Origin: Lacipirellula parvula
GTDB lineage: Bacteria; Planctomycetota; Planctomycetia; Pirellulales; Lacipirellulaceae
Assembly (NCBI RefSeq): GCF_009177095.1
Contig: NZ_AP021861.1
Coordinates: forward strand, 6,616,501 to 6,680,500
Length of the DNA stretch: 64,000 nt
Direction: 5' to 3'
Below the pieces are notes generated by a model. That model searched no databases, was not told where the DNA came from, and saw only the letters and a program-made list of their open reading frames with translations. Below, piece after piece: positions 254-63,819 of this stretch. Each line of letters opens with the position of its first letter. The first letter of the stretch is position 1. Made by a program: the position numbers and the translations under genes.

Positions 254-347
254 TTGTCAGTTGTCCGTTGTCAGTCGTCAGTTGTGAAGGCCAGCTGGTA
301 GATGCCGCTATCTAGTCGCAACTGACAACGGACCACTGACAACTGAC
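254..347. repeat. Palindromic repeat, family D (copy D1)
   Basis: An imperfect inverted repeat whose arms read GTCAGTTGTCCGTTGTCAG on one side and its near-complement CTGACAACGGACCACTGAC on the other. The same arms recur at 17191-17223, 44613-44709 and 47579-47599. It fills the spacer between panC and lgt. Confidence 0.85.
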
Positions 348-351
348 GCGA

Positions 352-1218
352 TTAGCCAATCCGCAAATTATCGATCAGCCGCGTCGTGCCGACCTTCGCT
401 GCGACGGCAATCGTAATCGGGCCGCTGATCGTCGCAACTTCGTCGACCGTCTCGTCGCGGACGATCGCGACGTACTCGACGTTCACGTCGCCGGCCGCCG
501 CCAGGTGTGCTAGCATCCGCTCACGAACCATAAGTGCGTCGCGCTCGCCGCCGGAAATTAATTCTTCTGCCAACCGCAGCGATTGGCTCAGCGAGAGCGC
601 TCGCCGCCGCTCATCGGGGCTGAGGTAAACGTTCCGCGAACTGAGCGCGAGCCCGTCGGCGTCGCGAATGATCGCGCAAACTCGCACATCGACCGGCAGG
701 TTGAGGTCGGCGGCCATCCGCTTCACGACGAGCGTCTGCTGATAATCTTTCCGCCCGAAGTACGCCCGATCGGCCGGCACGCATTCGAACAGCTTCAGCA
801 CCACCGTCGCGACGCCAGAAAAATGCCCCGGACGTGCGGCGCCTTCCCACGGCACGGCGACGGCGCCGACGTCGATCGACGTGCCATAGCCCGCCGGATA
901 CATCTCAGCCGCCTCGGGCACGAACACGAACTCGCAGCCCCGCTCCCGCAGCAAATCGAGATCACGCTCCAGCGGCCGCGGGTACTTCGTAAAGTCTTCG
1001 TTCGGACCGAACTGCGTTGGGTTGACGAAAATACTCGCCGCGACGCGATCGCATTCCGCGGCAGCCGCGTCGATCAAACTGAGGTGCCCCTCGTGCAGGG
1101 CGCCCATCGTCGGCACGAAGCCGACCGTCTCGCCGCCGCGCTGCACGTCGCGAATCGCGGTGCGCATCGCTTCAACGCCGTTGATCACCTGAAGGGAACG
1201 AGGCACGGCGGCGGGCAT
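352..1218 (-). CDS. panC: Pantothenate synthetase
   Basis: Cytosolic enzyme that condenses pantoate with beta-alanine, using ATP, in the last step of pantothenate (vitamin B5 / CoA precursor) synthesis. The 288-residue length is normal for the family. Visible motifs are the nucleotidyl-transferase HIGH-type segment PTMGALHEGHLSL near residue 37, NPTQFGPNEDF, FGRKDYQQ and the KMSKS-like region LSSRNVYLS. It lies 6 bp downstream of folK on the same strand, so the two probably form one transcript joining folate and pantothenate synthesis. Transcription ends in or before repeat D1. The function is secure from motifs; the start is the first ATG after the folK stop. Confidence 0.95.
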   Translation of the reverse strand: MPAAVPRSLQVINGVEAMRTAIRDVQRGGETVGFVPTMGALHEGHLSLIDAAAAECDRVAASIFVNPTQFGPNEDFTKYPRPLERDLDLLRERGCEFVFVPEAAEMYPAGYGTSIDVGAVAVPWEGAARPGHFSGVATVVLKLFECVPADRAYFGRKDYQQTLVVKRMAADLNLPVDVRVCAIIRDADGLALSSRNVYLSPDERRRALSLSQSLRLAEELISGGERDALMVRERMLAHLAAAGDVNVEYVAIVRDETVDEVATISGPITIAVAAKVGTTRLIDNLRIG

Positions 1219-1224
1219 CGCGAG

Positions 1225-2289
1225 CTAATCCGAAGGGGGTGCGACCGCCGCCAGCTCCGGCCACACTGCTTGGATCGCCGCCGCCGCTTCGGTCATCGGG
1301 TCGGCCGCCCCGAGTTGAGAGATCCACGCGACGGGGCCGCCGGTTGGAAGGTTAGGCATTCTACGCGAACCAGCCCCGGCGTGGAACGCGGGTCTGGCGG
1401 GCTGCGTCGGCGATTCACCAGCGGCCGTGGACGCGCTAGAAAAATTCAAAATTAATTTCGGCCGGCGTCGCCGCGACTCGTCGGCGCCCGCGCGGTAGGC
1501 AGCCCACGTCACGATTTGCGGCAACGCGAGCGCACCAGGGCTCGCCGCAAATGCATTGCGGAAGTGAGCACGCAGTCGCTCGGCCCACGCTTCAGCCTGT
1601 TGCTCGCTGTCCGCGATCACTGCGGCGACATCGGTGCCATGTTGAAGTTGCCTCAGCAGCGCAGCGACCGTCCAGCCGCTTGGCGGATGGATCATTCCCG
1701 GCGCGACGGCGGCAGCCGGCTCAAGGACGAAGCGCCGAAACGCCATCCGCGGATGCGGGACAATGAGATTGTCCGCATGACAGGGCGGGCGGCGAATCTC
1801 ACTTACCTGCGAACCGTCGAGAGAGCGAGCGACTAATGACTCTGAGGTCCCCTCCCCTTGAGGGGGAGGGCTAGGGAGGGGTGATTGCAGCGGGTACCAG
1901 CGTTCCACCCCCTCCCCAACCCTCCCCTCAAGGGGGAGGGAGCCAGAGAGAAGTGAATGTTGTTGAGAGCTTACGAACTGATCGTAGAGGAGTAGATCGA
2001 GATCGATCACCCTGGCTCCCCAACGTTCGGTGCGAACGCGGCCGAGCGCATCCTCAATTCGCTGCAGCGCTGCTAGCAGTGCTGTCGGCGCGAGAGACGT
2101 TTCCAATAAGGCCGCGCCATTGAGAAACGCCCCCTGCCCTGTCGGCCCGCCTATCGGGGGGGTCTCGAACCACCCGCTGCGGCGGATCAGTTGCGACTCC
2201 GGCAATCGCGCGAACTCGTCGAGCGCGCCGCCAAGCTGCCGCGCGCGGTCGCCGAGATTCGCACCGAGGGCAACAAGTGCGTGAGCCAT
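1225..2289 (-). CDS. folK: 2-amino-4-hydroxy-6-hydroxymethyldihydropteridine pyrophosphokinase with an in-frame repeat insertion
   Basis: HPPK transfers pyrophosphate from ATP to the hydroxymethylpterin in folate synthesis. The core is visible as ALGANLGDR at the N-terminus, RWGARVIDLDLLLYD near residue 100, and LIVPHPRMAFRRFVLEP after residue 174. In typical HPPK the last two motifs lie about 10-15 residues apart; here about 70 residues intervene. Thirty-three of these are the translation of a 99-bp family A palindrome (1846-1944). A C-terminal extension of about 140 residues follows the HPPK core and ends in a segment containing LPTGGPVAWISQ; I do not recognise it with confidence. An upstream TTG at 2295 is possible, but the ATG at 2289 fits the family start. 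Panther-like truncation is not seen: both core halves are intact. Confidence 0.88.
   Translation of the reverse strand: MAHALVALGANLGDRARQLGGALDEFARLPESQLIRRSGWFETPPIGGPTGQGAFLNGAALLETSLAPTALLAALQRIEDALGRVRTERWGARVIDLDLLLYDQFVSSQQHSLLSGSLPLEGRVGEGVERWYPLQSPLPSPPPQGEGTSESLVARSLDGSQVSEIRRPPCHADNLIVPHPRMAFRRFVLEPAAAVAPGMIHPPSGWTVAALLRQLQHGTDVAAVIADSEQQAEAWAERLRAHFRNAFAASPGALALPQIVTWAAYRAGADESRRRRPKLILNFSSASTAAGESPTQPARPAFHAGAGSRRMPNLPTGGPVAWISQLGAADPMTEAAAAIQAVWPELAAVAPPSD
1846..1944. repeat. Palindromic repeat, family A (copy A1), inside folK
   Basis: A 99-bp near-palindrome with GC-rich arms: CCCTCCCCTTGAGGGGGAGG at one end, its near-complement at the other, and a GGTACC-containing centre. 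Its length is a multiple of three and it carries no stop in the folK frame. A nearly identical 99-bp copy lies between genes at 15237-15335. Confidence 0.92.
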
Positions 2290-2337
2290 CGCCAAGCAAG
2301 CCGACTACGACTCTCCGCAGGCGCAATAAGAGACCAT

Positions 2338-5309: not shown

Positions 5310-5314
5310 GCGAC

Positions 5315-7639: not shown

Positions 7640-8639
7640 TCGCCGGCGGCTTCGCTTCGTTGATTAAATCAATCAGCACCCGCAGCCGCCCATAGTTCCG
7701 TCGATTGAAGTGAAACGCCAACCGCGGCAACGTCGAGAGGCTAAAGTCGTCGGCTTCTTCCTTAAACGCTTCGCGCTGCACGAACTCGCCCTTCGCCAAG
7801 AGGTCGGTGAAGTCGCGATTGATCTCCGCGAGCGTCTCCTCCGGCAGCTTGTGCTGCAAGCGGAACACTAGTTCCTTCCGCACGAACCGCATGCTGTGGA
7901 ACACACGATAGAACTGCATAATCTCGCCGACAGTCTCCTCGACCGTGTCGAACACTTTGTACAAACGGAAGTCAACGTGCGAGATCATTCGCTCGCCCCA
8001 CAGATGCTTGTCGACGAACGCGTGGAAGTCTTTCCAATAAGTGCCGCCCGGCTCGTCGAGCAAAATCACGGGCACCATGTCGCGTTTGCCTGTTTGCAAC
8101 AGCGTGAGCACTTCGAGCCCTTCGTCGAGCGTGCCGAAGCCGCCCGGCAGGCAGACCACGGCGTCGCACTCTTTGACGAACATCAGCTTGCGCGTGAAGA
8201 AGTACTTCATGTTCACGAGCTTCGGATCGTCGCGAATGATTTCGTTCGACGACTGCTCGAAGGGCAACATAATGTTGAGCCCCATCGAGTTCTCGCGCCC
8301 CGCGCCGCGATGCCCCGCCTCCATGATGCCGCTGGCGGCGCCGGTGACGACCAACCACTGCCGGTCGGCCATCTCCTTGCCGAGCTCCATCGCCTGCACG
8401 TAGGCCGGCGCGTCGGCCGGCGTGCGGGCTGAGCCGAAGACGGTCACCTTCCGCTTCCCCCGATAGCCGGCGAAGACTTTGAACGCATACCGCAGTTCGC
8501 GGATCGTGCGGGCGAGGATCTTCAAGTCGCCGCGATCGATGCGATCGGCGTGCATCTTGTCGGTCGACTCGCGTAGCATCGCGATCAGATCGGAAATATC
8601 GTCAGGCTCCATCGGAAGCTGGGAATCAACGGTCGACAT
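7602..8639 (-). CDS. LOG-family (TIGR00730) Rossmann-fold protein with C-terminal extension
   Basis: A 345-residue protein with the LOG / cytokinin-riboside-phosphoribohydrolase fold. VTVFGSARTPAD (near residue 64), VVTGAASGIMEAGHRGAG and the hallmark PGGFGTLDE (near residue 165) are all present. Characterised members hydrolyse nucleoside 5'-monophosphates to base and ribose phosphate; many bacterial ones are mis-annotated as lysine decarboxylases. Relative to short LOG proteins (about 190 residues) it has a helical N-terminal extension of about 60 residues and a C-terminal extension of about 100. Such long forms occur in several phyla. Cytosolic; its substrate is unknown. Confidence 0.9.
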   Translation of the reverse strand: MSTVDSQLPMEPDDISDLIAMLRESTDKMHADRIDRGDLKILARTIRELRYAFKVFAGYRGKRKVTVFGSARTPADAPAYVQAMELGKEMADRQWLVVTGAASGIMEAGHRGAGRENSMGLNIMLPFEQSSNEIIRDDPKLVNMKYFFTRKLMFVKECDAVVCLPGGFGTLDEGLEVLTLLQTGKRDMVPVILLDEPGGTYWKDFHAFVDKHLWGERMISHVDFRLYKVFDTVEETVGEIMQFYRVFHSMRFVRKELVFRLQHKLPEETLAEINRDFTDLLAKGEFVQREAFKEEADDFSLSTLPRLAFHFNRRNYGRLRVLIDLINEAKPPAIEEAKRHVPTLS

Positions 8640-8713
8640 GCTCTTTCGCTCTCTCTAACAGTCAGCGCAACGCACAGGCCCTGGGACTGCGCTGGAACGC
8701 GGTTCGATTTTTT

Positions 8714-8801
8714 TGACAGGATAACAGGATGTCAGAGATCAACGGGATGAAATTCGTTCTTACCGAAATCCTGTCGATCCCCCTCATCCTGTAATCCTGT
8801 C
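8714..8801. repeat. Palindromic repeat, family E (copy E1)
   Basis: Arms GACAGGATAACAGGAT and ATCCTGTAATCCTGTCC enclose a partly repeated centre containing AAATCCTGTCGATCC. Related copies lie at 30917-31008 and 32204-32329. It lies upstream of the LOG-family gene, which reads away from it. Confidence 0.85.
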
Positions 8802-8902
8802 CAGTCTTCAGTATTCTTAGCAACCAGACGCAACGAAAACAGCCCGGCGGGTGACGCCGGGCTGCTTCGAAGGTGTTCAAACTCGGTCGCGAGCGATCCC
8901 GC

Positions 8903-12728: not shown

Positions 12729-12772
12729 TGCGGTAGCCGCTCCGCTACCCCCGGGCAGAGCCCGGGGCTAAA
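12729..12772. repeat. Partial family B-like palindrome (copy B1)
   Basis: Two adjacent hairpins just after the third barrel gene: GCGGTAGCCGCTCCGCTACC and CCCCGGGCAGAGCCCGGGGC followed by TAAA. The second matches one arm of family B (see 58880-58970). It may serve as the end of the barrel operon. Confidence 0.7.
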
Positions 12773-13294: not shown

Positions 13295-13328
13295 CGTCCT
13301 AGCCCCTGGCTCCAAAAATAAACCCTGT

Positions 13329-13429
13329 GGTTCCCTCCCCTTGATGGGGAGGGTTAGGGAGGGGTGATTGAGGCGGGTACCAGGGTTCACTCCCCCCTCC
13401 CCAGCCCTCCCCTCAAGGGGGAGGGAGCC
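13329..13429. repeat. Palindromic repeat, family A (copy A3)
   Basis: A 101-bp copy of the family A near-palindrome found inside folK, here between convergent genes. It is two bases longer than the coding-compatible 99-bp copies. Confidence 0.92.
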
Positions 13430-13488
13430 GCAACATTTCTCTTGGGGAACGTCCCCAACTGGGGCTAGAAGAAACAACACAATAAAAG

Positions 13489-15068: not shown

Positions 15069-15236
15069 GGGAAAACCCTGCGGTGCGGTGGCGTTGAGCC
15101 GGGCCAGCGGAGGCACGTCGACTGGAACTGAAGTGACACCAGTCTACCCGATTGCCGAGCGCGCTTGAAGCGAGCACGAGGTGCGCGATGATGCACGCGC
15201 GTTCCATCCCATCCCCAAAGAAAAACTAACCCGTGA

Positions 15237-15335
15237 GGTCCCCTCCCCTTGAGGGGGAGGGTTAGGGAGGGGTGACGGAAGCGGGTACCAGCGTTCCACC
15301 CCCTCCCCAGCCCTCCCCTCAAGGGGGAGGGAGCC
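15237..15335. repeat. Palindromic repeat, family A (copy A4)
   Basis: A 99-bp copy almost identical to the one inside folK, located between the CDGSH gene and the anti-sigma factor gene. Its minus-strand translation in one frame gives the same peptide as the folK insert. Confidence 0.93.
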
Positions 15336-15363
15336 ACAACATTTGTTGTGGCAACAACACGCT

Positions 15364-18236: not shown

Positions 18237-19412
18237 ATGGCTCCGCTTGATTGGATCGACGCTGAACTCGCAGGCCTACGCCAGCGTGATCTGCTGCGCG
18301 AACTGCCGGCGCCGTTCGACCTGCAAACCACGACGATCGAAGTCGCCGGTCGGCCGCTGATCAACTTCGCGTCGAACGACTATCTCGGCCTCGCCGCCGA
18401 TCCCCGCCTTGCCGCCGCGGCGGCCGAGGCCTGCCATGCGACCGGCGTCGGTCGCGGCGCCAGCCCGCTCGTCTGCGGCCGTTCCACCATTCACGCCGAA
18501 CTCGAACGCCGGCTCGCCGAGTTCGAGCACGCCGAGGCCGCCCTGCTCTTCCCCTCCGGCTTCGCGGCGAACGCCGGCATTGTCCCCGCCCTTGCCGACC
18601 GCGGCGATGCGATCTTTGCCGATGCGAAGAACCACGCCAGCCTCATCGACGGCTGCCGCCTCTCGCGGGCCGAGACGCACATCTACCGCCACAACGATGC
18701 CGCGCACCTCGCCGAGTTGCTTGCCACCCATGCACCGCAGGCCCGCCGTTCGCTGATCGCAACCGACACCCTGTTCAGCATGGATGGCGACGTGGCGCCG
18801 CTCGTCGAGATCGCCGCCCTCGCGCGCCGCTACGATGCGATGCTGCTGCTCGACGAAGCCCACGCCACCGGCGTCTTCGGCCCGCACGGCCGCGGGCTGG
18901 CCGAGGCCGCCAGCATCGAACCGGACGGCGCCATCCGCATCGGCACGATGAGCAAGGCCCTCGGCGTCGCGGGCGGGTTTGTCGTCGGGCCGCAGGCGCT
19001 CGTCGATTACCTCGCGAATCGGGCCCGCAGCTACGTTTTCTCGACCGCTCAGCCGGCGTCGACCGCCGCCGCAGCGATTGTCGCCCTCGACGTCGTCGTC
19101 GCCGAACCGCAGCGCCGAACGCAGCTACTCGCCACGGCCGCCGACCTTCGCGAACGTCTCCAAGCCGCCGGCTGGCGAACCGGCGACTCAGCCAGCCAGA
19201 TCATCCCGATCGAGGTCGGCCCCGCAGCCGAAGCCGTCGCCCTCAGCCGCCGCCTCCGCGACGCCGGGTTCTGGGTCCCAGCGATCCGCCCCCCCTCGGT
19301 CCCCCCCGGCGAATCGCTGCTCCGCCTCAGCCTCACCGCCAATCACACCCCGGCGATGATCGGCGCCCTGCTCGCCGCCCTGGGAGCGAACCACCAAGAC
19401 GCGAAGGCATGA
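18237..19412 (+). CDS. bioF: 8-amino-7-oxononanoate synthase
   Basis: A PLP enzyme of the alpha-oxoamine synthase family, 391 residues. It condenses pimeloyl-ACP/CoA with alanine to make KAPA in biotin synthesis. Motifs: NFASNDYLGLAADPRL, GASPLVCGRSTIHAELE, ALLFPSGFAANAG, DAKNHASLIDGCRLS, LLLDEAHATGVFGPHGRG and the PLP-lysine segment TMSKALGVAGGFV. Close relatives (glycine C-acetyltransferase, Kbl) share these motifs; the N-terminal LRQRDLLRELPA favours BioF. No other bio gene is nearby. The last residues (NHQDAKA) and the stop lie in a dispersed repeat (see 19389-19594), so the natural end may have been replaced. Confidence 0.9.
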   Translation: MAPLDWIDAELAGLRQRDLLRELPAPFDLQTTTIEVAGRPLINFASNDYLGLAADPRLAAAAAEACHATGVGRGASPLVCGRSTIHAELERRLAEFEHAEAALLFPSGFAANAGIVPALADRGDAIFADAKNHASLIDGCRLSRAETHIYRHNDAAHLAELLATHAPQARRSLIATDTLFSMDGDVAPLVEIAALARRYDAMLLLDEAHATGVFGPHGRGLAEAASIEPDGAIRIGTMSKALGVAGGFVVGPQALVDYLANRARSYVFSTAQPASTAAAAIVALDVVVAEPQRRTQLLATAADLRERLQAAGWRTGDSASQIIPIEVGPAAEAVALSRRLRDAGFWVPAIRPPSVPPGESLLRLSLTANHTPAMIGALLAALGANHQDAKA

Positions 19413-19594
19413 AGAACGCACGAAGCACAAGCCCGCCTCTAGCCGGACCGCCACGCGGTCCGGGCGGCGCCACAAAACCGCTCGCCATTAAGCCACGGTG
19501 ACTCCACCGCAGCCCGGAGGACAGTGGCCCTCCGGCTGGAAGCCATACTTCCCCTTCGTGACTTCCTTCGTGCCCTCCGAGCCTTCGTGGCTTG
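19389..19594. repeat. Composite inverted repeat overlapping the bioF stop
   Basis: Outer arms: ACCACCAAGACGCGAAGGCA near 19390 and its imperfect partner CGAGCCTTCGTGGCTTGC ending near 19594. A family I hairpin (19434-19473) lies inside. The remaining spacer to 19870 holds a C-rich stretch and several copies of TGACCGC near 19810, but no gene that I can support. Confidence 0.7.
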
Positions 19595-19870: not shown

Positions 19871-21259
19871 TTGGCCCTCATTCTGCAAATCGTCGTTCTC
19901 TTGGTGGTCCTGGTCGGTCTGATCACGATCATCATGAGCATCAAGAACTGGCACTGGGCCCAGATGCTCCTGCTGCTGAGCATCTTCTTTATGTCGCTCG
20001 CCACCTTCTACTTGGGGTTGGAAACTTTCCGCCTCAATCGCAACATTCGCAAGAACATCATCACCAAGGAAAAGCAGCTAGCCGACCTCCAAGCCGACGT
20101 GCGCGCGTTGCAGCGGGGAACGATCAGCAGCGATCCGGCCGTGATGCGCGTCTTCAACTCCGAAAAGTTTGCCGGCGAAGTGCCGTACGACGCCGAGGTC
20201 GAAGGCCGCATGCCGAGCCTCGCCGTCTGGACGACGCGGTTGCAAGATCTCGCCCGCGCTCGCGGCAAGGTCTGGCGCAACGCGACCCCCACCGCGATTC
20301 AGCAAACGGGCCAGGTGACCGTCACGATTGCTCCGGCGCAGCTGGCTCCGGCGGTCGATCCCGACATCGCTGACCCAAGCGCCGAGGCTCCTGCCGCCGC
20401 AGCTCCCGCGGCGCCGCAAGGTCACGGCCTCCCCGTCGGCGCCATCGTTTACGCCTTCGAGAACGGCGCCCCGAATCCTGCCGCTCCCGACCAAGGCGCC
20501 CAGTACATCGGCGAATTCAAAGTCGCCCAGGCCACCGAAAACGCGGTGGTGCTGGAACCAGTCCAAGCCATCACGCCGTTCATTGGCAATCGCATCCTCA
20601 AGTCGATCCAGACGAAGAAAACCTGGAGCCTGTACGAGCTGATGCCGGCAGACAACCACGCCCTCTTCGCCGGGCTCGATGAAGCCGCCCTCAAAGCGCT
20701 TCTGCCGGCGTCGACGGTCAACGAGTACATCCGCCAGGGAACGCCCGCGAAGCCCGACGACGACGAATACCACCGCGCCGCCTTCGACGCGGCCGCTCCC
20801 GAAGGGAATCAGATCGGTCCCGACGACGCGAAGGCAGACCCCTCGAAGGTCGTCGAATGGCGTTACGACCGCCCGCTGCGCGACTACAGCTACCTGTTCC
20901 CCGATATGATGCGCGAACGCTCCGTGATGGAAGCGGACATCGCGGAATTAAAGCAGCAGATTGCCGACCTCGACGCCGCGCAGGCCAGTGCGAAGAAGCT
21001 CGAAGCACTGCGTACGAAGGAGCGGACCGAGGTCAGCGCCGACCTGAAGAACATGGAACGCGACCTCGCGTTCATCAAGAACCTGCGGGCGAAAATCAAC
21101 TCGCAGATCGCTAACGGCCGGGCGCAGATCGAAAACTTGCTCAAGCAAAACGCCGATGGCGCCCGCACGCTGATCGCAGAGAAACTGGCGGAACTGCAAG
21201 AAATCGACAGACAGTCCCCCGCCCCAGCGCCCAGATCCCTGCTCAATCTCCCTAACTAG
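19871..21259 (+). CDS. Hypothetical membrane-anchored coiled-coil protein
   Basis: A 462-residue protein with two N-terminal membrane helices (LILQIVVLLVVLVGLITIIM and AQMLLLLSIFFMSLATFYLG), then a large soluble part. Residues about 60-95 and 345-440 are strongly coiled-coil (EADIAELKQQIADLDAAQAS, RDLAFIKNLRAKINSQIAN). A middle domain (GAIVYAFENG, YIGEFKVAQATENAVVLEPV) may be beta-rich. It starts with TTG; the first ATG is inside the first helix (MSIKNWH), so the TTG is needed for a complete helix. Function unknown; likely envelope-associated. No operon partner. Confidence 0.78.
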   Translation: MALILQIVVLLVVLVGLITIIMSIKNWHWAQMLLLLSIFFMSLATFYLGLETFRLNRNIRKNIITKEKQLADLQADVRALQRGTISSDPAVMRVFNSEKFAGEVPYDAEVEGRMPSLAVWTTRLQDLARARGKVWRNATPTAIQQTGQVTVTIAPAQLAPAVDPDIADPSAEAPAAAAPAAPQGHGLPVGAIVYAFENGAPNPAAPDQGAQYIGEFKVAQATENAVVLEPVQAITPFIGNRILKSIQTKKTWSLYELMPADNHALFAGLDEAALKALLPASTVNEYIRQGTPAKPDDDEYHRAAFDAAAPEGNQIGPDDAKADPSKVVEWRYDRPLRDYSYLFPDMMRERSVMEADIAELKQQIADLDAAQASAKKLEALRTKERTEVSADLKNMERDLAFIKNLRAKINSQIANGRAQIENLLKQNADGARTLIAEKLAELQEIDRQSPAPAPRSLLNLPN

Positions 21260-21286
21260 CGAGCCGCGGGGTTCACCCCCGCGGTC
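21259..21286. repeat. Hairpin repeat, family F (copy F1)
   Basis: GCGAGCCGCGGGGTTCACCC with its complementary stem and GGTC end, immediately after the stop of the coiled-coil protein gene. It could act as a terminator, but no T-tract follows. Confidence 0.8.
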
Positions 21287-21341
21287 TGCGTCCCCCCGCA
21301 GTTCTCTTTCTCGCCGCCAGCGACGACGATAAAATCGTCAC

Positions 21342-23594: not shown

Positions 23595-23597
23595 CCA

Positions 23598-23624
23598 GCG
23601 AGCCGGAGGGTTCATCCCTCCGGT
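23598..23624. repeat. Hairpin repeat, family F (copy F2)
   Basis: GCGAGCCGGAGGGTTCATCC with its complementary stem, ending in GGTC. Best match to the family consensus. It may act as the terminator of the preceding gene. Confidence 0.82.
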
Positions 23625-23887
23625 CCCCGCCCCGGTCCCCCGCCCCCAGATCCCGCCCCGCCAATCTGCGCAAAACCACCGCCCCCCTTCTGCGTAAAAT
23701 AGGGAGTAGGAATTCGTTCCACGCACGGGGATACTGAATGCCCTGCCAACCGTTGGGCTTCCCGGCCAGCCCCGCCCAAAAACGTCCCGCCCCGCCGCTC
23801 CCCGCCCCGCATCATTAAGGTTCCGTCATCCCCGCCATCGCCCGTTCCCGCGGGTAACAGCCCGTTTCCCACCCCGGCGCCATGCCA
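23625..23887. other. C-rich spacer upstream of the lpd promoter
   Basis: Strong strand asymmetry: repeated CCCCGCCCC, CCCGCCCC and CCCCC runs on the plus strand, so G-runs on the minus strand. No gene is supported. G-quadruplex or i-motif potential is conceivable but unproven. Confidence 0.5.
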
Positions 23888-30874: not shown

Positions 30875-30916
30875 CCGGTCAGCGCCGACTCTTGCGTTCA
30901 CTCAAGCCTTCGAAAG

Positions 30917-31008
30917 ACTGGACAGGATAACAGGATCTCGCGGATTGACAGGATCAGCGGCAACCGCAAGAAGATCCTGTCGATCTATGTAATCCTGTTA
31001 TCCTGTCA
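30917..31008. repeat. Palindromic repeat, family E (copy E2)
   Basis: Arms GACAGGATAACAGGATCTCG and ATCCTGTTATCCTGTC with an interior GACAGGATC/GATCCTGTC pair. It lies between the convergent esterase and M50 protease genes; AAAAAATC follows on the plus strand. Confidence 0.88.
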
Positions 31009-31029
31009 AAAAATCAATCGGTGAAGCTG

Positions 31030-34022: not shown

Positions 34023-34377
34023 ACGGCGGGAGCGGGGACTAACGCGGCGGCGAAAACGCCATCGCGCGGCGGGGAATTCAGCAATGCGCAAGTGTAGCTC
34101 ATAGTGGAGAACCGCCATGTCGCCGCCTGCCTTCGTCGGCACGCGCCTGCCGCTGCTAGCACGACCGCTACAACCGCCCCACGACGGCACGTCGCCCTGC
34201 TCCCCCTAGCCCCGGGCTCCGCCCGGGGGTCGCCAACCATTCCGGTAACCGTTGCCCCACGTAACGCTCCCCCCGGGCGAAGCCCGGGGCTAGAAGCGCC
34301 TCACACACACCGAGGTGCCCTAGGGCCCCTCTCCGACCCGCAGTACAATCACCCGCCGCCCTTCGCTCGCCTCAAGG
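34023..34377. other. Divergent promoter region between the HDOD and CBM9-like genes
   Basis: 355 bp between divergent starts. The central part is the family B repeat copy B2. No clear -35/-10 pair stands out for either gene. Confidence 0.5.
34207..34292. repeat. Palindromic repeat, family B (copy B2)
   Basis: Arms TAGCCCCGGGCTCCGCCCGG and its near-complement; the interior includes ACCATTCCGGTAACCGTTGC, a diverged form of the interior seen in other copies. Confidence 0.88.
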
Positions 34378-35949: not shown

Positions 35950-36043
35950 TAGCCCCGGGCTCCGCCCGGGGGGGGTGAGCTTCCATTCCGTTTGGCGACG
36001 TCGCGCGCTGTGGTAACCGACCCCCAGGCGGAGCCCAGGGCTA
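35950..36043. repeat. Palindromic repeat, family B (copy B3)
   Basis: Arms TAGCCCCGGGCTCCGCCCGG and near-complement GGCGGAGCCCAGGGCTA. The interior, GCTTCCATTCCGTTTGGCGA, is the reverse complement of the interior in B5-B7, so this copy is inverted relative to them. The rest of the 347-bp spacer is the blaI promoter region. Confidence 0.9.
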
Positions 36044-36272: not shown

Positions 36273-36689
36273 ATGCCCCGCGCCCCCAGCCCCCACCCCA
36301 CCGACGTCGAGCTTGAAATCCTCCAGGCCCTCTGGAATCACGGCCCCTGCTCGCTCAGCGTCGTGTGTGAAACGCTCCGCACCGAGCGTGAAGTCGCCGC
36401 TACCACCGTCGCCACGATGCTCCGCGTGATGAGCGACAAACAACTCGTTAAGCGAACCGGCAGCGGCCGCGGCGCCACGTGGAGCGCCGTCGTCACCCAA
36501 CAACGGACCGAAGCCGGCATGGTCGGCGCCCTCGTCGACCGCCTCTTCGCCGGCGCCGCCGACCGCCTCGCCGCCCATCTCGTCGAAGGGGGACAGCTCA
36601 ACCCCACGCAATTGGCCGAACTCCGCCAATTGATCGATCAGCAATCCAAAAGCACAACCACGAAGCCGCGAAAGCACAAAGAAAAATGA
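36273..36689 (+). CDS. blaI: BlaI/MecI-family transcriptional repressor
   Basis: A 138-residue winged-helix repressor. It starts PHPTDVELEILQALWNHGPC, has VAATTVATMLRVMSDKQLVK (recognition helix region) and a dimerisation part RTEAGMVGALVDRLFAGAAD. In the BlaI/BlaR1 scheme, the membrane M56 protein triggers cleavage or release of the repressor. A ribosome-binding site AGGAGG lies 9 nt before the ATG. The last dozen residues (STTTKPRKHKEK) are encoded by a dispersed repeat sequence and look added. The 2,046-residue M56 gene follows after 115 bp, and a matching operator lies upstream. Confidence 0.93.
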   Translation: MPRAPSPHPTDVELEILQALWNHGPCSLSVVCETLRTEREVAATTVATMLRVMSDKQLVKRTGSGRGATWSAVVTQQRTEAGMVGALVDRLFAGAADRLAAHLVEGGQLNPTQLAELRQLIDQQSKSTTTKPRKHKEK

Positions 36690-36760
36690 CGAAGCCCGAA
36701 TGACGAATGAAAGTCGCTTGCGTCCCTCATTCGTCATTCGGATTTCGTCATTCGTCATTA
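36654..36760. repeat. Composite inverted repeat at the blaI 3' end
   Basis: AACCACGAAGCCGCGAAAGC (coding the BlaI tail) is followed by an inverted pair built from ATGACGAA and TTCGTCAT motifs (36686-36760). It separates blaI from the M56 gene. Confidence 0.7.
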
Positions 36761-36804: not shown

Positions 36805-39800
36805 ATGAACGCCTCGCTCTGGCAACTCGCCGGTTGGACGATGATTCACTCGCTCTGGATCGGCGCCGCCGTCGCCCTCGCCGGCGGCATCGTGCGTCTC
36901 GCCGCCCGCCGCGCCGCACCGAGCACCCGCTACGCAATCAGCCTCGTGACGCTCGCGGCCCTCGCGATTTCCCCCCTCGCCGCCGCCACGTGGCTCAGCG
37001 TGAACGGCGTGCCCATGATTAACACTGTCCTGCTCCCTCCCCCTGGAGGGGAGGGCTGGGGAGGGGGGCAGCCAGCCGTTAATGGCATGCAGTTCGCCAA
37101 AGCGATAGAGAATGCTCAAGGTGCAGGGCAGTCCGCGTACCCGCTTCTTCACCCCTCCCTAACCCTCCCCCTCAAGGGGAGGGAACCAGAAGAAATTGAA
37201 AACGCTACCGAGCAATCTGGGGCGCCAACCTCTCTCGTCATCGACCTCGCCCACTCCGATCCCTCGCCCCCGTACTCCGGGGAGAGGTTAGGTGAGGGGC
37301 AGAACCTGCTAACGTCGATGCCTCCCGCCGCCGCAAGCGTCTTCCCCAACGCCACGGTCGAGAATCCCTCCCCTACCCCCTCCCTTCCAGGGAGGGGAAC
37401 CCACTTCCCCACCGATCACCAGTCACCGCTCACCGAATACCTCTCCCGCCTCGCCGCCGCCATCCCCTACCTCCCCATCCTCTGGCTCGTCGGCGCCCCG
37501 CTCACCTTCACGCTCCTCGCCGCCGGCCTCGTCGGCTCCGAACGCCTTCGCCGCCGCGCGACGCCACTCGTCGCCGGCCCGGCCTTCGACGCCTGCCAGC
37601 GGATGCGCACCGCCCTCCGCATTTCGCGCCGCGTCGCGCTCGCCGCATGCGACGGCGTCGCCCAACCGGTCCTCGTCGGCGTCTTTCGCCCGCTCATCCT
37701 GCTGCCGACCGCCGCCCTCGCCGGTTGGACGCCCGAGCAACTCGACATGATCTTGCTCCACGAACTCGCCCACGTCCGCCGCTGGGACAACCTCGTCAAC
37801 CTGCTGCAGCGAATTATCGAGTCGCTACTCTTCTATCACCCCGCCGTCTGGATCCTCAGCCGGCAAGTTCGCCACGACCGCGAAGAATGCTGCGACGCGA
37901 CGGTGATTCGCCACACCGATCAGCCGCACCAATATGCCGAACTGCTCGTCTCGATCGCCGCCGCCCTACGAGGCGGCCCAGCCCCCTCGCTTGCCGTGGC
38001 CAGCGCGATGGCCAGCCACCCCCTCGCCGGCCGCATCCGCCGGATCCTCAACATCGAGGCCGAACCAATGCGCATCACCCGTCGCACGCTCGCCGCCACG
38101 CTCTTGCTCCCGCTCCTCCTCGCCGGCGCCATCCTCTACAGCGGCGCGAACGCGCAAAATCCCCCTCCCTCGCAGGGAGGGGCCAGGGGAGGGATTCCCG
38201 ATGCTAGCCAACCGAGTACGCTCGCCAGTGACGAGCAAACGGACAAGAACATCGTCCCAACATCCAAGCTATCGTCCTTGGAAGCAAAAGCTCCCGCAGC
38301 GCTCACGCAGGCTCTCGCCGACGTCCAAAAAAACAAAGAGGCGTTACTCGCAGCGCAACAGCAATTACAGGCAGCTCAAGCCGACACAAAGTTAAGCAAT
38401 GATGAAATGGTTGAGCGATTGCTTTTAAAAAGGTTGGATGAAGACGAAACGCACCAAATCCTCACGCAGCAATCTGCTGCGATCAAGTCCCAGCTAGAGA
38501 ACTGGCTGGCGGCCGGCGTCTCCAGCGACGACGCGGGAGTGAAGCAACTCAAAGATTCCTTGGCAAAGGTCGATGCCGAAATCGCTGAGTGCCGGCAGTC
38601 GATTCGAGCGAAGGTCGAAGGCGGGATGTCCCTAGGAAATGACGATTATCGTAGAAACGTCCGAGAAGCGATTCGTAACGACGAAGCCAATCGCGCGCGG
38701 CAGCTCATCTTCGAACGCCAAAACGAGTTCCGCAATTCGCTCAGTCGGCTCGCTAACCTCACCGTCGCCGTGAACGCCAATGGCCCTGGTCCCTCAAGCC
38801 AGCCTGCCGCAGCCAACAACGCCCCCGCAACCGCCAGCGCCCCGTCCGCCGCCGCGCCGACCGCAACCGAAGATGCCCCCGTCTATCTGATGACACATCC
38901 CCTCGACAAATTCCCCGAGAACGTCGACATGCGGCGTTGGATGGAGATCGTTACTTCAGATCCACGCATCGAAATCCAATGGCAACCAGCGGAAAAACGA
39001 TTCGTAGTTGCCGCCCCCAAGAGCGGCCATGAGCAATTCACGGCTCTACTTGCAGCCGCCCGCAAGTCGATGGCTGCCGGCGAAGAACCTTCTGCCAACG
39101 CAGAAGTCTCCCAACTCCAAACCGAAATCCGCAACATCGAAGCGGAAATTCGCAAAACGCAAGAAGATCTCACAAACCTCGAAGTCTTCAGGCAGCTGGC
39201 GGTTGAAGGCGCATCGTCACCGGCGCTGATTGAGCAAGCGATCGCCTTAGAACTTGAAAAGAACGAAACGCTGAAGAGCTTCAACAATCGTCTCCTCGAC
39301 ATCGATCGCTTCGTTGCGTCGGAGGAATCACAGCTGGCTGACGATGCGACCGACCAAGAGCGCGAGACGATTGCCAACCTCGGCGCCCTCCGCAAAACGA
39401 CGGCCGCAAAACGCGACGCTTACCGAACCGAAGCGGCAAAGAAGCTGCGCGACCGCATCGCCAAAATGCCAAATGAAGCCCTCCGCTCCGCGACTATCGA
39501 GTACAACATCCGCCGTAAAGTCGTCGACCGCAAGCTCGCCGAGCATCAACAAGAACTGGATGCAGCCCGCCAGAGGCTCATGCAACTCGGCGTCGACAAC
39601 CACATCCCTACCCTGCGAGACGAAATCCGCAACCTCGAAGTGCTCGCCGCCAGGGCTCAAGAGGAAGTGGTCAATCTCGAACTCTACAAGCAAATCGACG
39701 GCTACGGCCGTCACCCCGGCAGCGGCGAACTCGACCAAGCTATCGCCAAAGAAATGGAGCAAGACCCGACCGTCAACGAACTACGCCAAAAACTGTTCGA

Positions 39801-43397: not shown

Positions 43398-44606
43398 ATG
43401 CCCATCCTCATCGGCGTCGACGAAGCCGGCTACGGACCGAACTACGGCCCGCTCGCCATCGCCGCCACCGCCTGGCGAGTGGCGGAGAGGCTAGAAGCCA
43501 GAGGTCAGAAGCCAGAGAAAAATAAAAAGCGAGCCGGGGGGTTCATCCCCCCGGTCTTGGCTCCATCCCTCCCCGCGATCGACCTCTACAAACTCCTAAA
43601 AAAATCGGTCGTCCGCTCCCCCCAAGAGTGCCCCAAGCGAATCGCCATCGCCGATTCCAAACAACTCTACAAACCAGGCCTCGGCATCCGCCATCTCGAA
43701 CGCGGCGTCCTCGCAGCGCTCATCAATACGTCGCCGACGACACAACAAAAGTGCGTTGAGCGCGTTGAACAACTCCTCGCCGCGACGCTCGCCGATCCGC
43801 ACTCGCGCCGCCACGAACTCGCCTGCCACGCCGGCGACGACCAACAGCTGCCGCTCGATGCCATCGCGGAAGAGATCTGCACCGCAGCCGCCCTCTTCCG
43901 CGAAGTCGCCGCCGCCAACGGCGTCGCGCTGCTGACGATCCGCGCGAAACTGATTTATCCCGCCGAGTTCAACGACCTCGTCGACAAGCACGGCACGAAG
44001 GGGGCGGTGCTGTCGCATCTCACGCTTGAGCTCGTGCGCGAGACGGTCGACGCGGCGCTGATGAACGGAGGGATAAACCCTCCGGCTCGCAATCAATCGA
44101 ACCTTCCGGCTCGCCAGTCAGGCATCGCCTCCGCTCGCAAACAACCAAAATCACAAGCCACGCTCTTCCCCCCTGAACCCCGAACCCCGACCCCTACGAC
44201 CTCCCGAACCCTGCGCCCCGAACCCTGCCACCTCACCTTAGACAAACACGGCGGCCGCAACCGCTACGCCGCGATCCTCCAGCACCACTTCCCCGACAGC
44301 TGGATCGAAACCCTCGACGAAGGCCGCGCGGCGAGCCGTTACCGTTGGACCCATCGCGACGCCCCGATCGAAGCGACCTTCCGCGTCGGCGGCGAAGAGC
44401 AACTCCCGACCGCGCTCGCCTCGATGACCGCCAAGTACCACCGCGAGTTGGCGATGCGAGCATTCAACGATTTTTGGACGACTCGTCTCCCCGGCCTCAA
44501 ACCAACCGCCGGGTACCCAAACGACGCGAAAAGATTTCGCGCGGAGATCGAGCATCTGCAACGCGAATTGAAAATTGACGACCGACTTATTTGGCGGAAT
44601 CGATAA
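43398..44606 (+). CDS. Divergent RNase HII-like protein with repeat-derived insertions
   Basis: A 402-residue protein. The N-terminus ILIGVDEAGYGPNYGPLAIA and the segment RIAIADSKQLYK match RNase HII, with its Asp-Glu pair in the first motif. LTLDKHGGRNRYAAIL and GGEEQLPTALASMTAKYHRE look like the later active-site segments, with Glu where Asp is usual. It is much longer than RNase HII (about 200 residues). Two segments are repeat-derived: KRAGGFIPPVLAPS (family F at 43529-43556), and GGINPPARNQ (family F at 44067-44090) plus a Pro/Thr/Arg-rich stretch. RNA-DNA hybrid cleavage is plausible, not shown. The ATG at 43398 opens on the motif. Confidence 0.72.
   Translation: MPILIGVDEAGYGPNYGPLAIAATAWRVAERLEARGQKPEKNKKRAGGFIPPVLAPSLPAIDLYKLLKKSVVRSPQECPKRIAIADSKQLYKPGLGIRHLERGVLAALINTSPTTQQKCVERVEQLLAATLADPHSRRHELACHAGDDQQLPLDAIAEEICTAAALFREVAAANGVALLTIRAKLIYPAEFNDLVDKHGTKGAVLSHLTLELVRETVDAALMNGGINPPARNQSNLPARQSGIASARKQPKSQATLFPPEPRTPTPTTSRTLRPEPCHLTLDKHGGRNRYAAILQHHFPDSWIETLDEGRAASRYRWTHRDAPIEATFRVGGEEQLPTALASMTAKYHRELAMRAFNDFWTTRLPGLKPTAGYPNDAKRFRAEIEHLQRELKIDDRLIWRNR
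43529..43556. repeat. Hairpin repeat, family F (copy F3), inside a coding region
   Basis: GCGAGCCGGGGGGTTCATCC with its complementary stem and GGTC end. It lies in frame in the RNase HII-like gene. Confidence 0.83.
44067..44090. repeat. Hairpin repeat, family F (copy F4), inside a coding region
   Basis: GGAGGGATAAACCCTCCGGC followed by TCGC, the reverse orientation of F2/F3. It lies in frame in the RNase HII-like gene. Confidence 0.78.
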
Positions 44607-44612
44607 TGAATG

Positions 44613-44709
44613 CGTCAGTTGTCAGTGGTCCGTTGTCAGTTGCGAAATGCAGGAACCCGCGACCGAGCATCGAACCCGACAACAACTGACAACGGACCAC
44701 TGACCACGG
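44613..44709. repeat. Palindromic repeat, family D (copy D3)
   Basis: CGTCAGTTGTCAGTGGTCCG and its complement CGGACCACTGACCACGGAC-type arm fill most of the spacer upstream of the SixA-like gene. It is a full-length copy comparable to D1. Confidence 0.88.
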
Positions 44710-44723
44710 ACAAAAAAGAAAAA

Positions 44724-46944: not shown

Positions 46945-47000
46945 AAGGGTTCGGCGGTTAGGGTTCAGGGTTCAGCACAGCACTAACGCTCGCAAAACCA

Positions 47001-47026
47001 GCGAGCCGGGGCGTCCCCGCCCCCGG
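47001..47026. repeat. Hairpin repeat, family F (copy F5)
   Basis: GCGAGCCGGGGCGTCCCCGC and CCCCGG, a diverged copy in the spacer after the oxidoreductase gene. Confidence 0.6.
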
Positions 47027-47138
47027 CCGTGCACCACGCCCCGGCCGCGCGAACCTAGCCCCTCAATTCCCCCCCTCTTATAATGAGGGATCGGCTTACG
47101 GCTGCGCGGTTCCAGCATTGGAACAAGCGCCGCCAAGA

Positions 47139-48922: not shown

Positions 48923-49013
48923 TGTGGGAGGGGTCTCCGACCCCGAAGCAGCGCGGCAAATCGATGACGGCGTGTGGTGGTAAACGGTTTCGGCGTCGGA
49001 GACGCCTCCCACA
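48923..49013. repeat. Palindromic repeat, family C (copy C1)
   Basis: 91 bp. Left arm TGTGGGAGGGGTCTCCGACC, right arm CGGCGTCGGAGACGCCTCCC followed by ACA. Each arm contains its own small palindrome (GGGGTCTCCGACCCC; GGCGTCGGAGACGCC). It lies between convergent genes sufS and the SelW-like gene. Confidence 0.9.
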
Positions 49014-51516: not shown

Positions 51517-51606
51517 TGTGGGAGGCGTCTCCGACGCCGATTCCGGTCACCGCTACCGGACGATATCGCCTTACCGCGCGACCTCGGGGTCGGAGACCCC
51601 TCCCAC
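51517..51606. repeat. Palindromic repeat, family C (copy C2)
   Basis: 90 bp. Left arm TGTGGGAGGCGTCTCCGACG, right arm CGGGGTCGGAGACCCCTCCC followed by ACA, i.e. inverted relative to C1. It lies in the leader of the radical SAM gene. Confidence 0.9.
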
Positions 51607-51629
51607 AAATCCTCGGCCCTCCGACGAGA

Positions 51630-52236: not shown

Positions 52237-52252
52237 AACGCCGACGCGATTC

Positions 52253-52343
52253 TAGCCCCGGGCTCCGCCCGGGGATCGGCCACCACATCGCGCGACGTTG
52301 CCGAACGGAATGGAAACTCACCCCCGGGCGGAGCCCGGGGCTA
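52253..52343. repeat. Palindromic repeat, family B (copy B5)
   Basis: 91 bp. Arms TAGCCCCGGGCTCCGCCCGG and near-complement; interior CGCGACGTTGCCGAACGGAA, shared with B6 and B7. It lies between the convergent fxsA and cytochrome c peroxidase genes. Confidence 0.93.
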
Positions 52344-56056: not shown

Positions 56057-56164
56057 CGCGTTGCCTCATTCCGAGTGGTGCGTCGCAGTGCGGGCTGCGA
56101 CGTACCAGTCTCGGAGAGGCTGCGCTCACCGTCAACACGTGACGGCCTGGGTCAGAGCGTTTCT

Positions 56165-56255
56165 AGCCCCGGGCTTCGCCCCGGGGGTCGGCCACGACAT
56201 CGCGAGACGTTGCCAAACGGAATGGAAACCTACCCCCGGGCGGAGCCCGGGGCTT
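56165..56255. repeat. Palindromic repeat, family B (copy B6)
   Basis: 91 bp; arms TAGCCCCGGGCTTCGCCCCG and near-complement, interior CGAGACGTTGCCAAACGGAA. It lies just after the stop of the TPR gene (56274) on that gene's 3' side. Confidence 0.93.
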
Positions 56256-56273
56256 CATTAACACGGAAAGCGA

Positions 56274-58760: not shown

Positions 58761-58879
58761 GCGGAAAATAGTCCGATTAGTCACAGAAACCGATGTAAGC
58801 AAACCCTTTAGCGGCAGTGCTGGCAAGTGAATTCGGAGCGTAAACTTGCCGGCTTGTAGGAGAGCATGCGCGTTCACCC

Positions 58880-58970
58880 TAGCCCCGGGCTCCGCCCGGG
58901 GGTCGGCCGCCCTATCGCGCGACATTGCCAAACGGAATGGAAACCTACCCCCGGGCGGAGCCCGGGGCTA
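58880..58970. repeat. Palindromic repeat, family B (copy B7) ending in the mnmE-like stop
   Basis: 91 bp; arms TAGCCCCGGGCTCCGCCCGG and near-complement, interior CGCGACATTGCCAAACGGAA. The last three bases, read on the minus strand, are the TAG stop codon of the mnmE-like gene. Confidence 0.93.
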
Positions 58971-60988: not shown

Positions 60989-61018
60989 GTGATCTGAGCC
61001 GAGCGGCGGCGTCAGCGG

Positions 61019-62038: not shown

Positions 62039-62048
62039 GGAACGACTC

Positions 62049-62084: not shown

Positions 62085-62120
62085 GCGAAATCTAATCAAA
62101 CAACGCGACGCGTCAGCCGA

Positions 62121-62378: not shown

Positions 62379-62497
62379 TGCAGAAGACCTTCGACTGTAA
62401 ACGTTAGGCTAAAGGAAAAATCGATGCCGCGGCGAGGTCGCTGACCTCCAGCCTACGGACGACTAGTCCACAGCCCGAGATTCCGAGTCCGGCGATT

Positions 62498-63490
62498 CTA
62501 CCGGTAAACCCAGCGATAGGCAACGCCTTCGCCGGAGTCATAGAAATCGGCCCGCTGGGGGGCGGTTCCGAAGCGAACTTCCCGCTCATTCTGGCCGATA
62601 TCGTCGCCAGGACGCCAAAAGTTAAGCTGGAGCGTCTTGTAGGTGAATTTCCGCCCGGTCCCCGGGGCATCCCCCTTTTTGAAGACCCCCTTGGGATCGG
62701 TCCAGGCAAGGCCGTTCGACAGCCCCCGGACGTAGATCGAGAAGAAATCGATCTGCGGGTCGACGTCTTCCCACATCGCCACGCCCCACATGCCTTCCTG
62801 GGTGCGGCCGGCTTCGACCTTCAGCAACTGGTTGGCCAGGTCGACGCTGTTGTAGAGCTTGCCTCGCGGCATCTCGCGCTGCTCAATCGGGCCGAGCGCC
62901 GTCGGCACGATCCGATCGAGGTAAGACTTCCGCACCCGCTGGCCGCCGGAGCGGTCGTTGCTCGTTAGCACGAGTTCGGGAATGAAGCGAATCTCGTCGG
63001 TGCTCTTCTCCACGGTCTCGAAGGTGCCGTCGGGGTTTGCCTTGCCGGTGAGCCCGGCGCCGGTGTTCCGCACACGGTAGACCATATACCAGATTTGCTT
63101 GCGCTGAACGCGGCCGCTCGGCTGCGGGACGTCGACCTCGATCATCCGCAGCGGTTTGAACGCGAATTCCAGGCACCAGACGTCGTTGATGAAGACCGCG
63201 TCTTTGGCCATCTCGTAGAGCGTGCGGCTCTTGGTGGTCGTCGACGCCGGTTCCCACTGCAAACTGGTCTCGGAGAGGATTTCCGGGATGTCGTGGTGGC
63301 TGATGACATCCGCGCGATCAACCGACGGAGGAATCGTCGTCAGCACGCCCGGGGCGAATTCGCCGGGAGCGGGCGCGACGTTGGCCGTCACTTGAGCAGG
63401 TTCTTGGGCGCTGACCGCGGCGGCTCCGCAAGCGAGCGACGCCAGCGCGCACATGAGTGCCAAAGAACGGGAAAGTCGATCGCTGCGCAT
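62498..63490 (-). CDS. Secreted protein of unknown function
   Basis: A 330-residue exported protein with signal peptide LSRSLALMCALASLACGAAA-VSAQ. The mature part has no known domain. Characteristic segments are DRADVISHHDIPEILSET, DVWCLEFAFKPLRMIEVDVP, IWYMVYRVRNTGAGLTGK, MWGVAMWEDVDPQIDFFSIY and TLQLNFWRPGDDI. It looks beta-rich. The pattern seems planctomycete-specific; I know no function. A promoter-like pair lies about 95 nt upstream of its start. It stands on the same strand as rpmA, 120 bp before it. Confidence 0.85.
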   Translation of the reverse strand: MRSDRLSRSLALMCALASLACGAAAVSAQEPAQVTANVAPAPGEFAPGVLTTIPPSVDRADVISHHDIPEILSETSLQWEPASTTTKSRTLYEMAKDAVFINDVWCLEFAFKPLRMIEVDVPQPSGRVQRKQIWYMVYRVRNTGAGLTGKANPDGTFETVEKSTDEIRFIPELVLTSNDRSGGQRVRKSYLDRIVPTALGPIEQREMPRGKLYNSVDLANQLLKVEAGRTQEGMWGVAMWEDVDPQIDFFSIYVRGLSNGLAWTDPKGVFKKGDAPGTGRKFTYKTLQLNFWRPGDDIGQNEREVRFGTAPQRADFYDSGEGVAYRWVYR

Positions 63491-63582
63491 GAGATGCTGT
63501 TCCGGGAAACTGACGTAACGTCCGTCGCCGCACGAGCCATCCTATGCAAGGCGAGAAGGATCCTGACTTTAGACGTCCCTGC

Positions 63583-63611
63583 AGTATAAATGCCCTGCCC
63601 CGCAGCAGCAA
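63583..63611 (-). promoter_or_regulatory. Promoter-like pair for the secreted-protein gene
   Basis: On the minus strand, TTGCTG (63606-63611) and TATACT (63583-63588) are 17 nt apart, about 95 nt before the ATG. The -10 is good, the -35 weak. Confidence 0.45.
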
Positions 63612-63728
63612 ACTTCGCCCCGTCGCCCCAGCCTTCCCGCGGCCGTTTTTTCGTGGTTTTATCGGCGGAAACAGGCGAAGAGCCCCCGAGGCCGTACAAC
63701 CGGCAAATCTGCCGACCGCTACTCGGCC

Positions 63729-63819
63729 TGTGGGAGGGGTCTCCGACCCCGACTCAGCGTCGCGCTACCGATTCCGCTCGGCGTGGCGAGTGAAATCGGC
63801 GTCGGAGACGCCTCCCACA
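63729..63819. repeat. Palindromic repeat, family C (copy C3)
   Basis: 91 bp; left arm TGTGGGAGGGGTCTCCGACC, right arm CGGCGTCGGAGACGCCTCCC followed by ACA. Same orientation as C1; the interiors differ. Confidence 0.92.

What the first reader, a model, noticed from the sequence alone, without database searches (positions are those of the whole stretch)
254..63819. At least eight palindromic repeat families with a common architecture and no mobiliser in the window
Families A (99-101 bp), B (91 bp), C (90-91 bp), D (about 95 bp) and E (about 90 bp) are unrelated in sequence but alike in build: two GC-rich inverted arms around an interior of about 20-40 bp. In A, B and C each arm forms its own hairpin. 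This resembles REP doublets (BIMEs) or MITEs moved in trans by a RAYT-like Y1 transposase. Similar lengths in unrelated families hint at one shared mechanism with changing substrates. That is the best candidate here for an undescribed system.
Basis: partly seen in the sequence, partly recalled or inferred. Interest (0 to 1): 0.7.

Follow-up and report, generated by a model that had tools for sequence, protein, structure and literature searches.

The report
Hairpin mini-transposons with transposases elsewhere
Most of these short palindromic repeats are known-type bacterial mini-elements (REPINs) that spread through the genome with the help of small single-strand transposases, which here sit outside the window or were found only in related species.

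Summary
The repeats are real. The window lies in a 6.92-Mb planctomycete chromosome; congener G003 is Lacipirellula limnantheis I41. Three doublet families dominate; matches to degenerate arm patterns here are A 261, B 244, C 183, reversed controls 0.

C is a REPIN: its GTGG-headed arms flank a REP-associated tyrosine transposase (RAYT) gene at 1.466 Mb, and the gene's four closest homologues have C-type arms too. B has a RAYT clade in Planctomycetota: 16 of 17 database loci carry B-type hairpins nearby, 13 on both sides. No B-type RAYT was found in this genome; that of L. limnantheis is frame-broken. F hairpins flank two RAYT genes here.

Of sites resolved in both congeners, 5 of 5 C, 7 of 10 B and 4 of 5 A are empty in both; 26 hits were unresolved. 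B and C show no target duplication. No RAYT was found for A; D, E and G are of another build. Known kind, new families; the interesting point is a B population apparently without its own RAYT.

The parts
1843..1945 (+). Family A doublet
   Evidence: no A in the syntenic spacers of G003 and G004, where B-like elements are seen by eye
13314..13443 (+). Family A copy (core 13326-13428) sitting between B half-arms (left half about 13299-13313, right remnant about 13444-13468); G003 and G004 carry a B element without A at this site
15234..15336 (+). Family A doublet
   Evidence: syntenic spacers unresolved
37032..37187 (-). Family A copy with altered interior
   Evidence: G004 has an A at the syntenic spacer, G003 not
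34207..34292 (+). Family B doublet (REPIN)
   Evidence: absent in G003 and G004
35950..36043 (-). Family B doublet
   Evidence: absent in both congeners
52252..52343 (+). Family B doublet
   Evidence: absent in both congeners
56164..56255 (+). Family B doublet
   Evidence: absent in both congeners
58879..58970 (+). Family B doublet; a B-type element with other stem pairs is seen by eye in the G004 spacer
   Evidence: absent in G003, G004 unresolved by script
12735..12770 (+). Lone B arm; G004 has a full B-type element in the matching spacer by eye
   Evidence: unresolved by script
48923..49013 (+). Family C doublet (REPIN)
   Evidence: absent in both congeners
51517..51607 (-). Family C doublet
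   Evidence: absent in both congeners
63729..63819 (+). Family C doublet
   Evidence: absent in both congeners
21258..21289 (+). Family F lone hairpin (AGCGAGCCG head, variable stem)
   Evidence: the same hairpin type flanks two Y1 genes of this genome (read by eye)
23597..23628 (+). Family F lone hairpin
43528..43559 (+). Family F lone hairpin
47000..47031 (+). Family F lone hairpin
   Evidence: near-identical to a hairpin beside the RAYT at 19231-19701 of this genome
8709..8808 (+). Family D inverted array of ACAGGAT units; by eye also in the G004 spacer, not in G003
30914..31013 (+). Family D; by eye also in the G004 spacer, not in G003
36678..36759 (+). Family E inverted array of ATGACGA units; congeners have a different (CACGAAG-type) inverted repeat in this spacer by eye
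254..349 (+). Family G inverted array of ACTGACA units
44612..44711 (+). Family G inverted array

Best explanation
Families B and C, and in single-hairpin form F, are REPs and REPINs: two inverted hairpin ends around a free-to-drift spacer, non-autonomous elements copied through single-stranded DNA by small HUH/Y1 transposases (RAYTs), each recognising its own hairpin. Shown: the doublet anatomy, the copy numbers, RAYT genes flanked by the same arms, presence/absence differences between congeners, and no target duplication. Inferred: that the RAYT does the moving, the single-strand route, and dispersal by copying. C has its RAYT gene in this genome. B's RAYT clade occurs in several Planctomycetota groups but was not found here and is broken in L. 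limnantheis, so the B population has no cognate mobiliser that I could find. A is a mobile doublet far more numerous in this species than in its relatives; what moves it is unknown. D, E and G belong to a separate class of inverted short-unit arrays.
For: C: the RAYT gene at 1466085-1466588 lies between inverted C arms. It scores 119.9 bits against NCBIfam NF047646 (cut-off 80) and matches the solved TnpA-REP 4er8 at 2.2e-6. Four of four of its closest homologues (52-62% identity, two other genera) have C-type arms on both sides. Genomes with at least 30 C arms: 4 of 5 with a close C-RAYT against 4 of 38 without, Fisher p 0.0026, the threshold chosen after seeing the counts. B: the G003 Y1 gene lies among B doublets; of six clade members in this family 5 have B-type hairpins on both sides and 1 on one side, one of the five (L236) with a changed stem. 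In the database scan 13 of 17 loci have them on both sides, 3 on one (one of these without the AGCC head), 1 on none, within 300 bp. The five aligned clade members keep HxH and a Tyr. B spacers are related (54% identity, shuffled 36%). No target duplication of 4 bp or more in 26 B and 12 C copies. Resolved syntenic sites are mostly empty.
Against: No excision or insertion was observed, and absence in congeners could also be loss. Syntenic anchors are only about 71-89% identical, so no base-exact empty site could be read for B or C. B mostly starts with CTAG here (C before TAG in 32 of 42 ends, G in 4), not the classic GTAG/GTGG. The B clade is a weak Y1 match (Pfam best 2.1e-4, first member 21.9 of 23 bits) and finds no solved structure. 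Three of 10 resolved B sites are shared with both congeners. Four genomes have 32 or more C arms without a close C-RAYT. None of 81 Y1-type loci in a motif scan (IS200 types and one repeat included) has A arms on both sides.
Confidence: 0.85

Rival explanations
1. The elements are DDE-transposase MITEs whose terminal inverted repeats happen to be palindromic.
For: Terminal inverted repeats and about 90-100 bp length; A in particular has a partly conserved interior and asymmetric ends.
Against: 26 B and 12 C copies show no target duplication of 4 bp or more; the genes that I found between such arms are Y1 types, though only Y1 genes were searched for. Not tested for A, whose outer boundary is uncertain.
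Confidence: 0.1
2. Independent evolution of transcription terminators or RNA hairpins: the copies are selected hairpins, not transposed units.
For: Three of four F hairpins lie within about 60 bp of the 3' end of a mechanical open reading frame of 300 aa or more; one B stem position varies but mostly stays complementary.
Against: Arms are alike in letters, not only in structure, in hundreds of places; related spacers are carried along (54% against 36% shuffled); 244, 161 and 280 B arm matches in this genome and two congeners but 4, 0 and 0 in three other (draft) congeners.
Confidence: 0.05
3. B elements are old, and gene conversion or a host DNA-binding function keeps the arms alike; RAYT movement is long over in this species.
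For: No B-RAYT found in this genome, yet 244 arm matches; the variable stem pair is mostly G:C here (44 of 50) but mixed in congeners, also at orthologous copies.
Against: Seven copies, four of them in this window, are 87-100% alike over the whole element, and 7 of 10 resolved sites are empty in both congeners, which points to movement after the species split.
Confidence: 0.2

Closest known systems
REP Pflu1 of Pseudomonas fluorescens SBW25 and its RAYT (PMC2817692), and REPINs of that strain (PMC3116915); passages read
   Same: Arm GTGGGAGGGGGCTTGCCCCCGAT against C arm GTGGGAGGGGTCTCCGACCCCGA; inverted doublets with a less conserved spacer; RAYT gene flanked by the same REPs
   Different: Loop TCC instead of TT; in all 12 full C copies listed the left and right stems differ
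GTAG REPs, REPtrons and TIRtrons (Di Nocera 2013, PMC3733652; abstract, section 16 and passages read)
   Same: RAYT genes flanked by REP monomers or dimers or by palindromic TIRs; several families per genome; reported for R. baltica
   Different: The arm sequences found here do not appear in the text that I read; its figures and supplementary tables were not seen
Insertion sequences that target REPs (Tobes and Pareja 2006, PMC1525189; abstract read)
   Same: One A copy sits between the halves of a B palindrome
   Different: A is a 100-130 bp non-coding doublet, not an IS; the association is seen in few copies

Membership tests
REPIN (REP doublet forming hairpin) | Two inverted REPs at fixed spacing | tested here: met
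   B: arm starts 62-69 bp apart in 14 of 14 intact doublets of the sample; C: 91 bp in most of 12 full copies; A: inner arm starts mostly about 46 bp apart
REPIN (REP doublet forming hairpin) | Conserved arms with a diverse spacer | tested here: inconclusive
   B spacers 57% and arms 95% identical in 14 doublets, but these were picked by a pattern that fixes most arm letters, so the arm figure is partly by construction
REPIN (REP doublet forming hairpin) | Cognate RAYT flanked by the same REP in the same genome | tested here: inconclusive
   Met for C and F; not met for A and B in this genome, met for B in relatives
REPIN (REP doublet forming hairpin) | GTAG/GTGG head | tested here: inconclusive
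   C has GTGG; B mostly CTAG here and mostly CAG in congeners; some B-clade loci have GTAG
RAYT (REP-associated tyrosine transposase) | HUH motif and catalytic tyrosine, REP_Tyr_transpos model | tested here: met
   C-RAYT 119.9 bits against a cut-off of 80, TnpA-REP 4er8 match
RAYT (REP-associated tyrosine transposase) | Same model for the B clade | tested here: inconclusive
   All five members match NF047646 but weakly (best 1.3e-7; first member 26.9 of 80 bits); HxH and a Tyr invariant
IS200/IS605-type transposition | No target duplication | tested here: met
   0 of 26 B and 0 of 12 C copies with 4 bp or more; 2-3 bp matches at the level of re-paired controls
REPIN (REP doublet forming hairpin) | Excision or transposition intermediates | not testable with these tools
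   needs deep reads or bench assays

The most novel reading that the evidence does not exclude
In this species a large REPIN population (B, 244 arm matches) has outlived its own transposase lineage and still keeps many intact arms and has made new copies, because another resident RAYT whose arms share the TAGCC head (the 6829470 or 1819508 type) moves it in trans, or because conversion resets the arms.
Probability: 0.22. Interest if true: 0.65.

Novelty: new member of a known kind. Interest (0 to 1): 0.4.

Why it matters
It turns an anonymous repeat landscape in a planctomycete into ten Y1-type loci, eight with matching arms on both sides, and links family B to a RAYT clade found in database bins of Pirellulales and Phycisphaerales. 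Congeners in which the B transposase is broken or was not found while hundreds of arms persist offer a natural test of what keeps REPIN populations alive after RAYT loss; the modelling paper PMC8049555 (passages read) says that it has not addressed RAYT evolution.

Tried and rejected
RAYT with A-type arms: a motif scan of 81 Y1-type loci and reading of further loci found none on both sides; the loci were read for hairpins only. A loose regex for B doublets over-called (350-386 per species) and was replaced by a profile. Guessing syntenic positions in G003 by collinearity mostly failed; contiguous stretches around the window were used instead. C doublets as internally deleted RAYT elements: the right spacer end resembles the 3' end of the RAYT gene (112 of 216 letters; 5 of 20,000 shuffles as good), but other places in the locus match the spacer consensus as well or better, so this is not claimed. 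A targeting B: 4 of 26 A loci lie within about 200 bp of an intact B arm, but so do 6 of 29 H/J/M loci and 1 of 13 C loci (0 of 89 for C1, C2, F and G together, 0 of 3 D, 2% of random positions), so it is not special to A. The plasmid and phage collections gave no match to one B and one C element respectively. Rfam gave none at gathering scores. A literature search for six strings from A, B, C, D, G and a CGCAAAGG-type repeat gave 0 papers; figures are not searchable there, so absence from print is not claimed.
Full report
Setting. The window is 6616501-6680500 of a single 6,922,258-base contig. Its congener G003 has a contig of 6,777,282 bases, the length of NZ_CP036339.1, Lacipirellula limnantheis I41, and the same locus came back under that name. 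That this genome is Lacipirellula parvula is my inference from genus and size (size recalled; the two named species are); no call named it.

The repeats. One search found the families; one search shows them in register. A, B and C are inverted doublets of about 85-103 bp; F is a lone hairpin with a constant AGCGAGCCG head and a variable, complementary stem; D, E and G are inverted arrays of short units (ACAGGAT, ATGACGA, ACTGACA) with 44-56% G+C against 63% for the window. A de novo comparison of the window plus twenty 20-kb samples recovered A and B (merged in one cluster), C and G, and others such as a GGTCGTTGACC palindrome and a CGCAAAGG-type repeat; D, E and F did not reach its listing. 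Hairpins with stems of 8 or more number 219 in 464 kb against 37 after one shuffle of two-base blocks.

Copy numbers. B arms with at most one mismatch: 143 + 156, control 0. B pattern with two free stem letters: this genome 244, G003 161, G004 280, G002 4, G001 0, G005 0, controls 0. C pattern over 43 genomes of the family: this genome 183, G003 45, G010 164, G033 297, G038 76, G016 115, G008 49, G007 32, all others 0-8, controls 0. A pattern: this genome 261, then G005 31, G001 20, G004 18, G034 12, G006 9, G003 8, G008 7, others 0-3, controls 0. G001, G002, G004 and G005 are drafts, so their counts may be low. In 704 kb of unique sequence of this genome a profile finds 32 A and 13 C.

Mobilisers. 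Pfam Y1_Tnp at E up to 0.1 finds 8 places in this genome and a RAYT profile 8 (one at E 0.94 that I discount); together 10 Y1-type loci. Eight have palindromic arms on both sides: GTAGCCAGGGGC (2347180; called H), C (1466085), GCCGCGACCGG (3206016; K), F (19231 and 844787), TAGCCCCGACCTAGC (6829470; N), TTAGCCCCCGGTTCTTC (1819508, with a TGA inside; J) and GGACTGGTCGC (5231258; M). The letters are mine. 5470826 shows a palindrome on one side only and 3356529 is a fragment without arms found. C1 and C2 in other fields are the two extra repeats.

C and its RAYT. The gene at 1466085-1466588 lies between TTGTGGGAGGCGTCTCCGACGCCGATT and its inverse. Its homologues in G017, G038, G010 and G033 are 52-62% identical, and all four carry C-type arms on both sides, G017 with a compensated stem GGGCTC/GAGCCC. 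It is a REP_Tyr_transpos by NCBIfam's own cut-off and matches the solved TnpA-REP 4er8. Of the 5 genomes with a close C-RAYT, 4 have at least 30 C arms (the fifth, G017, has the altered stem, which the pattern misses, and scores 0); of the 38 others, 4 do (Fisher p 0.0026). I set the threshold of 30 after seeing the counts.

B and its RAYT. None of the Y1-type loci of this genome that I read has B arms. In G003 a Y1 gene at 8184-8603 lies among B doublets and reads in two frames. Its five nearest relatives in the family (42-58% identity) have B-type hairpins beside them, four on both sides and one on one side; one of them (G009) has a changed stem, CCCACGGC. A scan of named genomes found 17 loci; within 300 bp 13 have B-type hairpins on both sides, 3 on one side (one without the AGCC head) and 1, a partial match, on none; the record titles name Pirellulales, Phycisphaerales or other Planctomycetota (at least L296 and probably L285 repeat loci). 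The best hit in this genome is a different RAYT (E 1.4e-4). B here therefore looks orphaned. In G004 (86% complete) none was found either. One stem position of B is G:C, T:A or C:G in 49 of 50 arms here, 23 of 25 in G003 and 32 of 33 in G004, never A:T; among the G003 arms listed seven are unpaired there by my reading. Here 44 of 50 are G:C, while congeners are mixed: both arms are of one type in 14 of 14 intact doublets here, 2 of 5 in G003 and 2 of 10 in G004.

Mobility. In the syntenic region (324, 338 and 320 kb), of sites resolved in both congeners, C 5 of 5, B 7 of 10 and A 4 of 5 are absent from both; 3 B sites are present in both and 1 A in G004 only; 9 of 19 B, 13 of 18 A and 4 of 9 C hits could not be resolved, and two of the A hits are halves of one copy. 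Absence was judged with the profiles at E 1e-3, so worn copies could be missed, and absence may be loss. The A copy at 13326 sits between B half-arms, where G003 and G004 have a B element without A. Flanks of 26 B and 12 C copies show no duplication of 4 bp or more. B spacers, aligned alone, are 54% identical against 36% for shuffled ones; in the joint alignment they are 57% and the arms 95%, but those 14 doublets were picked by a pattern that fixes most arm letters, so the arm value is partly by construction. PMC8049555 (passage read) describes REPINs with a 'highly diverse spacer'. Seven copies, 87-100% alike over the whole element, four of them in this window, point to recent spread (which scored 40 of 262 candidates).

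What is not explained. A has no identified mobiliser. D is by eye shared with G004 at both window sites and missing in G003, so it looks older. E and G were not followed.

Verdict. New, as far as the text that I searched goes, are the families themselves, the planctomycete B-RAYT clade, and an apparently orphan B population; figures and supplements of the REP papers were not seen.

Noticed in passing
window 13299-13468: An A element between the halves of a B palindrome; both congeners have a B element without A there.
   Followed up: partly
L282 and L283 (this genome, about 1113.4 kb and 1127.4 kb): Two A copies 14 kb apart carry the same insert of about 60 bp at the same place in the right arm, as if an A carrying a passenger had been copied.
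   Followed up: no
L225:1134-1960 (G003): Frame-broken B-type RAYT of Lacipirellula limnantheis lying among three B doublets, one of them worn.
   Followed up: partly
B arms, own genome and congeners: One stem position is G:C, T:A or C:G in 104 of 108 arms and never A:T.
   Followed up: partly
window 8709-8808 and 30914-31013: Both D elements are by eye kept at the same site in G004 but missing from G003.
   Followed up: no
window 36678-36759: At the E site both congeners carry a different inverted repeat of the same short-unit class (CACGAAG units).
   Followed up: no
L133:2100-2900 (this genome, about 5.47 Mb): A Y1 gene with a GTAGACCGCTTAAGCGGTC palindrome on one side only, perhaps a decaying RAYT element.
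   Followed up: no
L108, L114, L121, L122, L124, L146 in relatives: Several Y1 genes of relatives are bounded by AAAGGGGACATTCTACTTT or close variants, another Y1 arm type in this family of bacteria.
   Followed up: no
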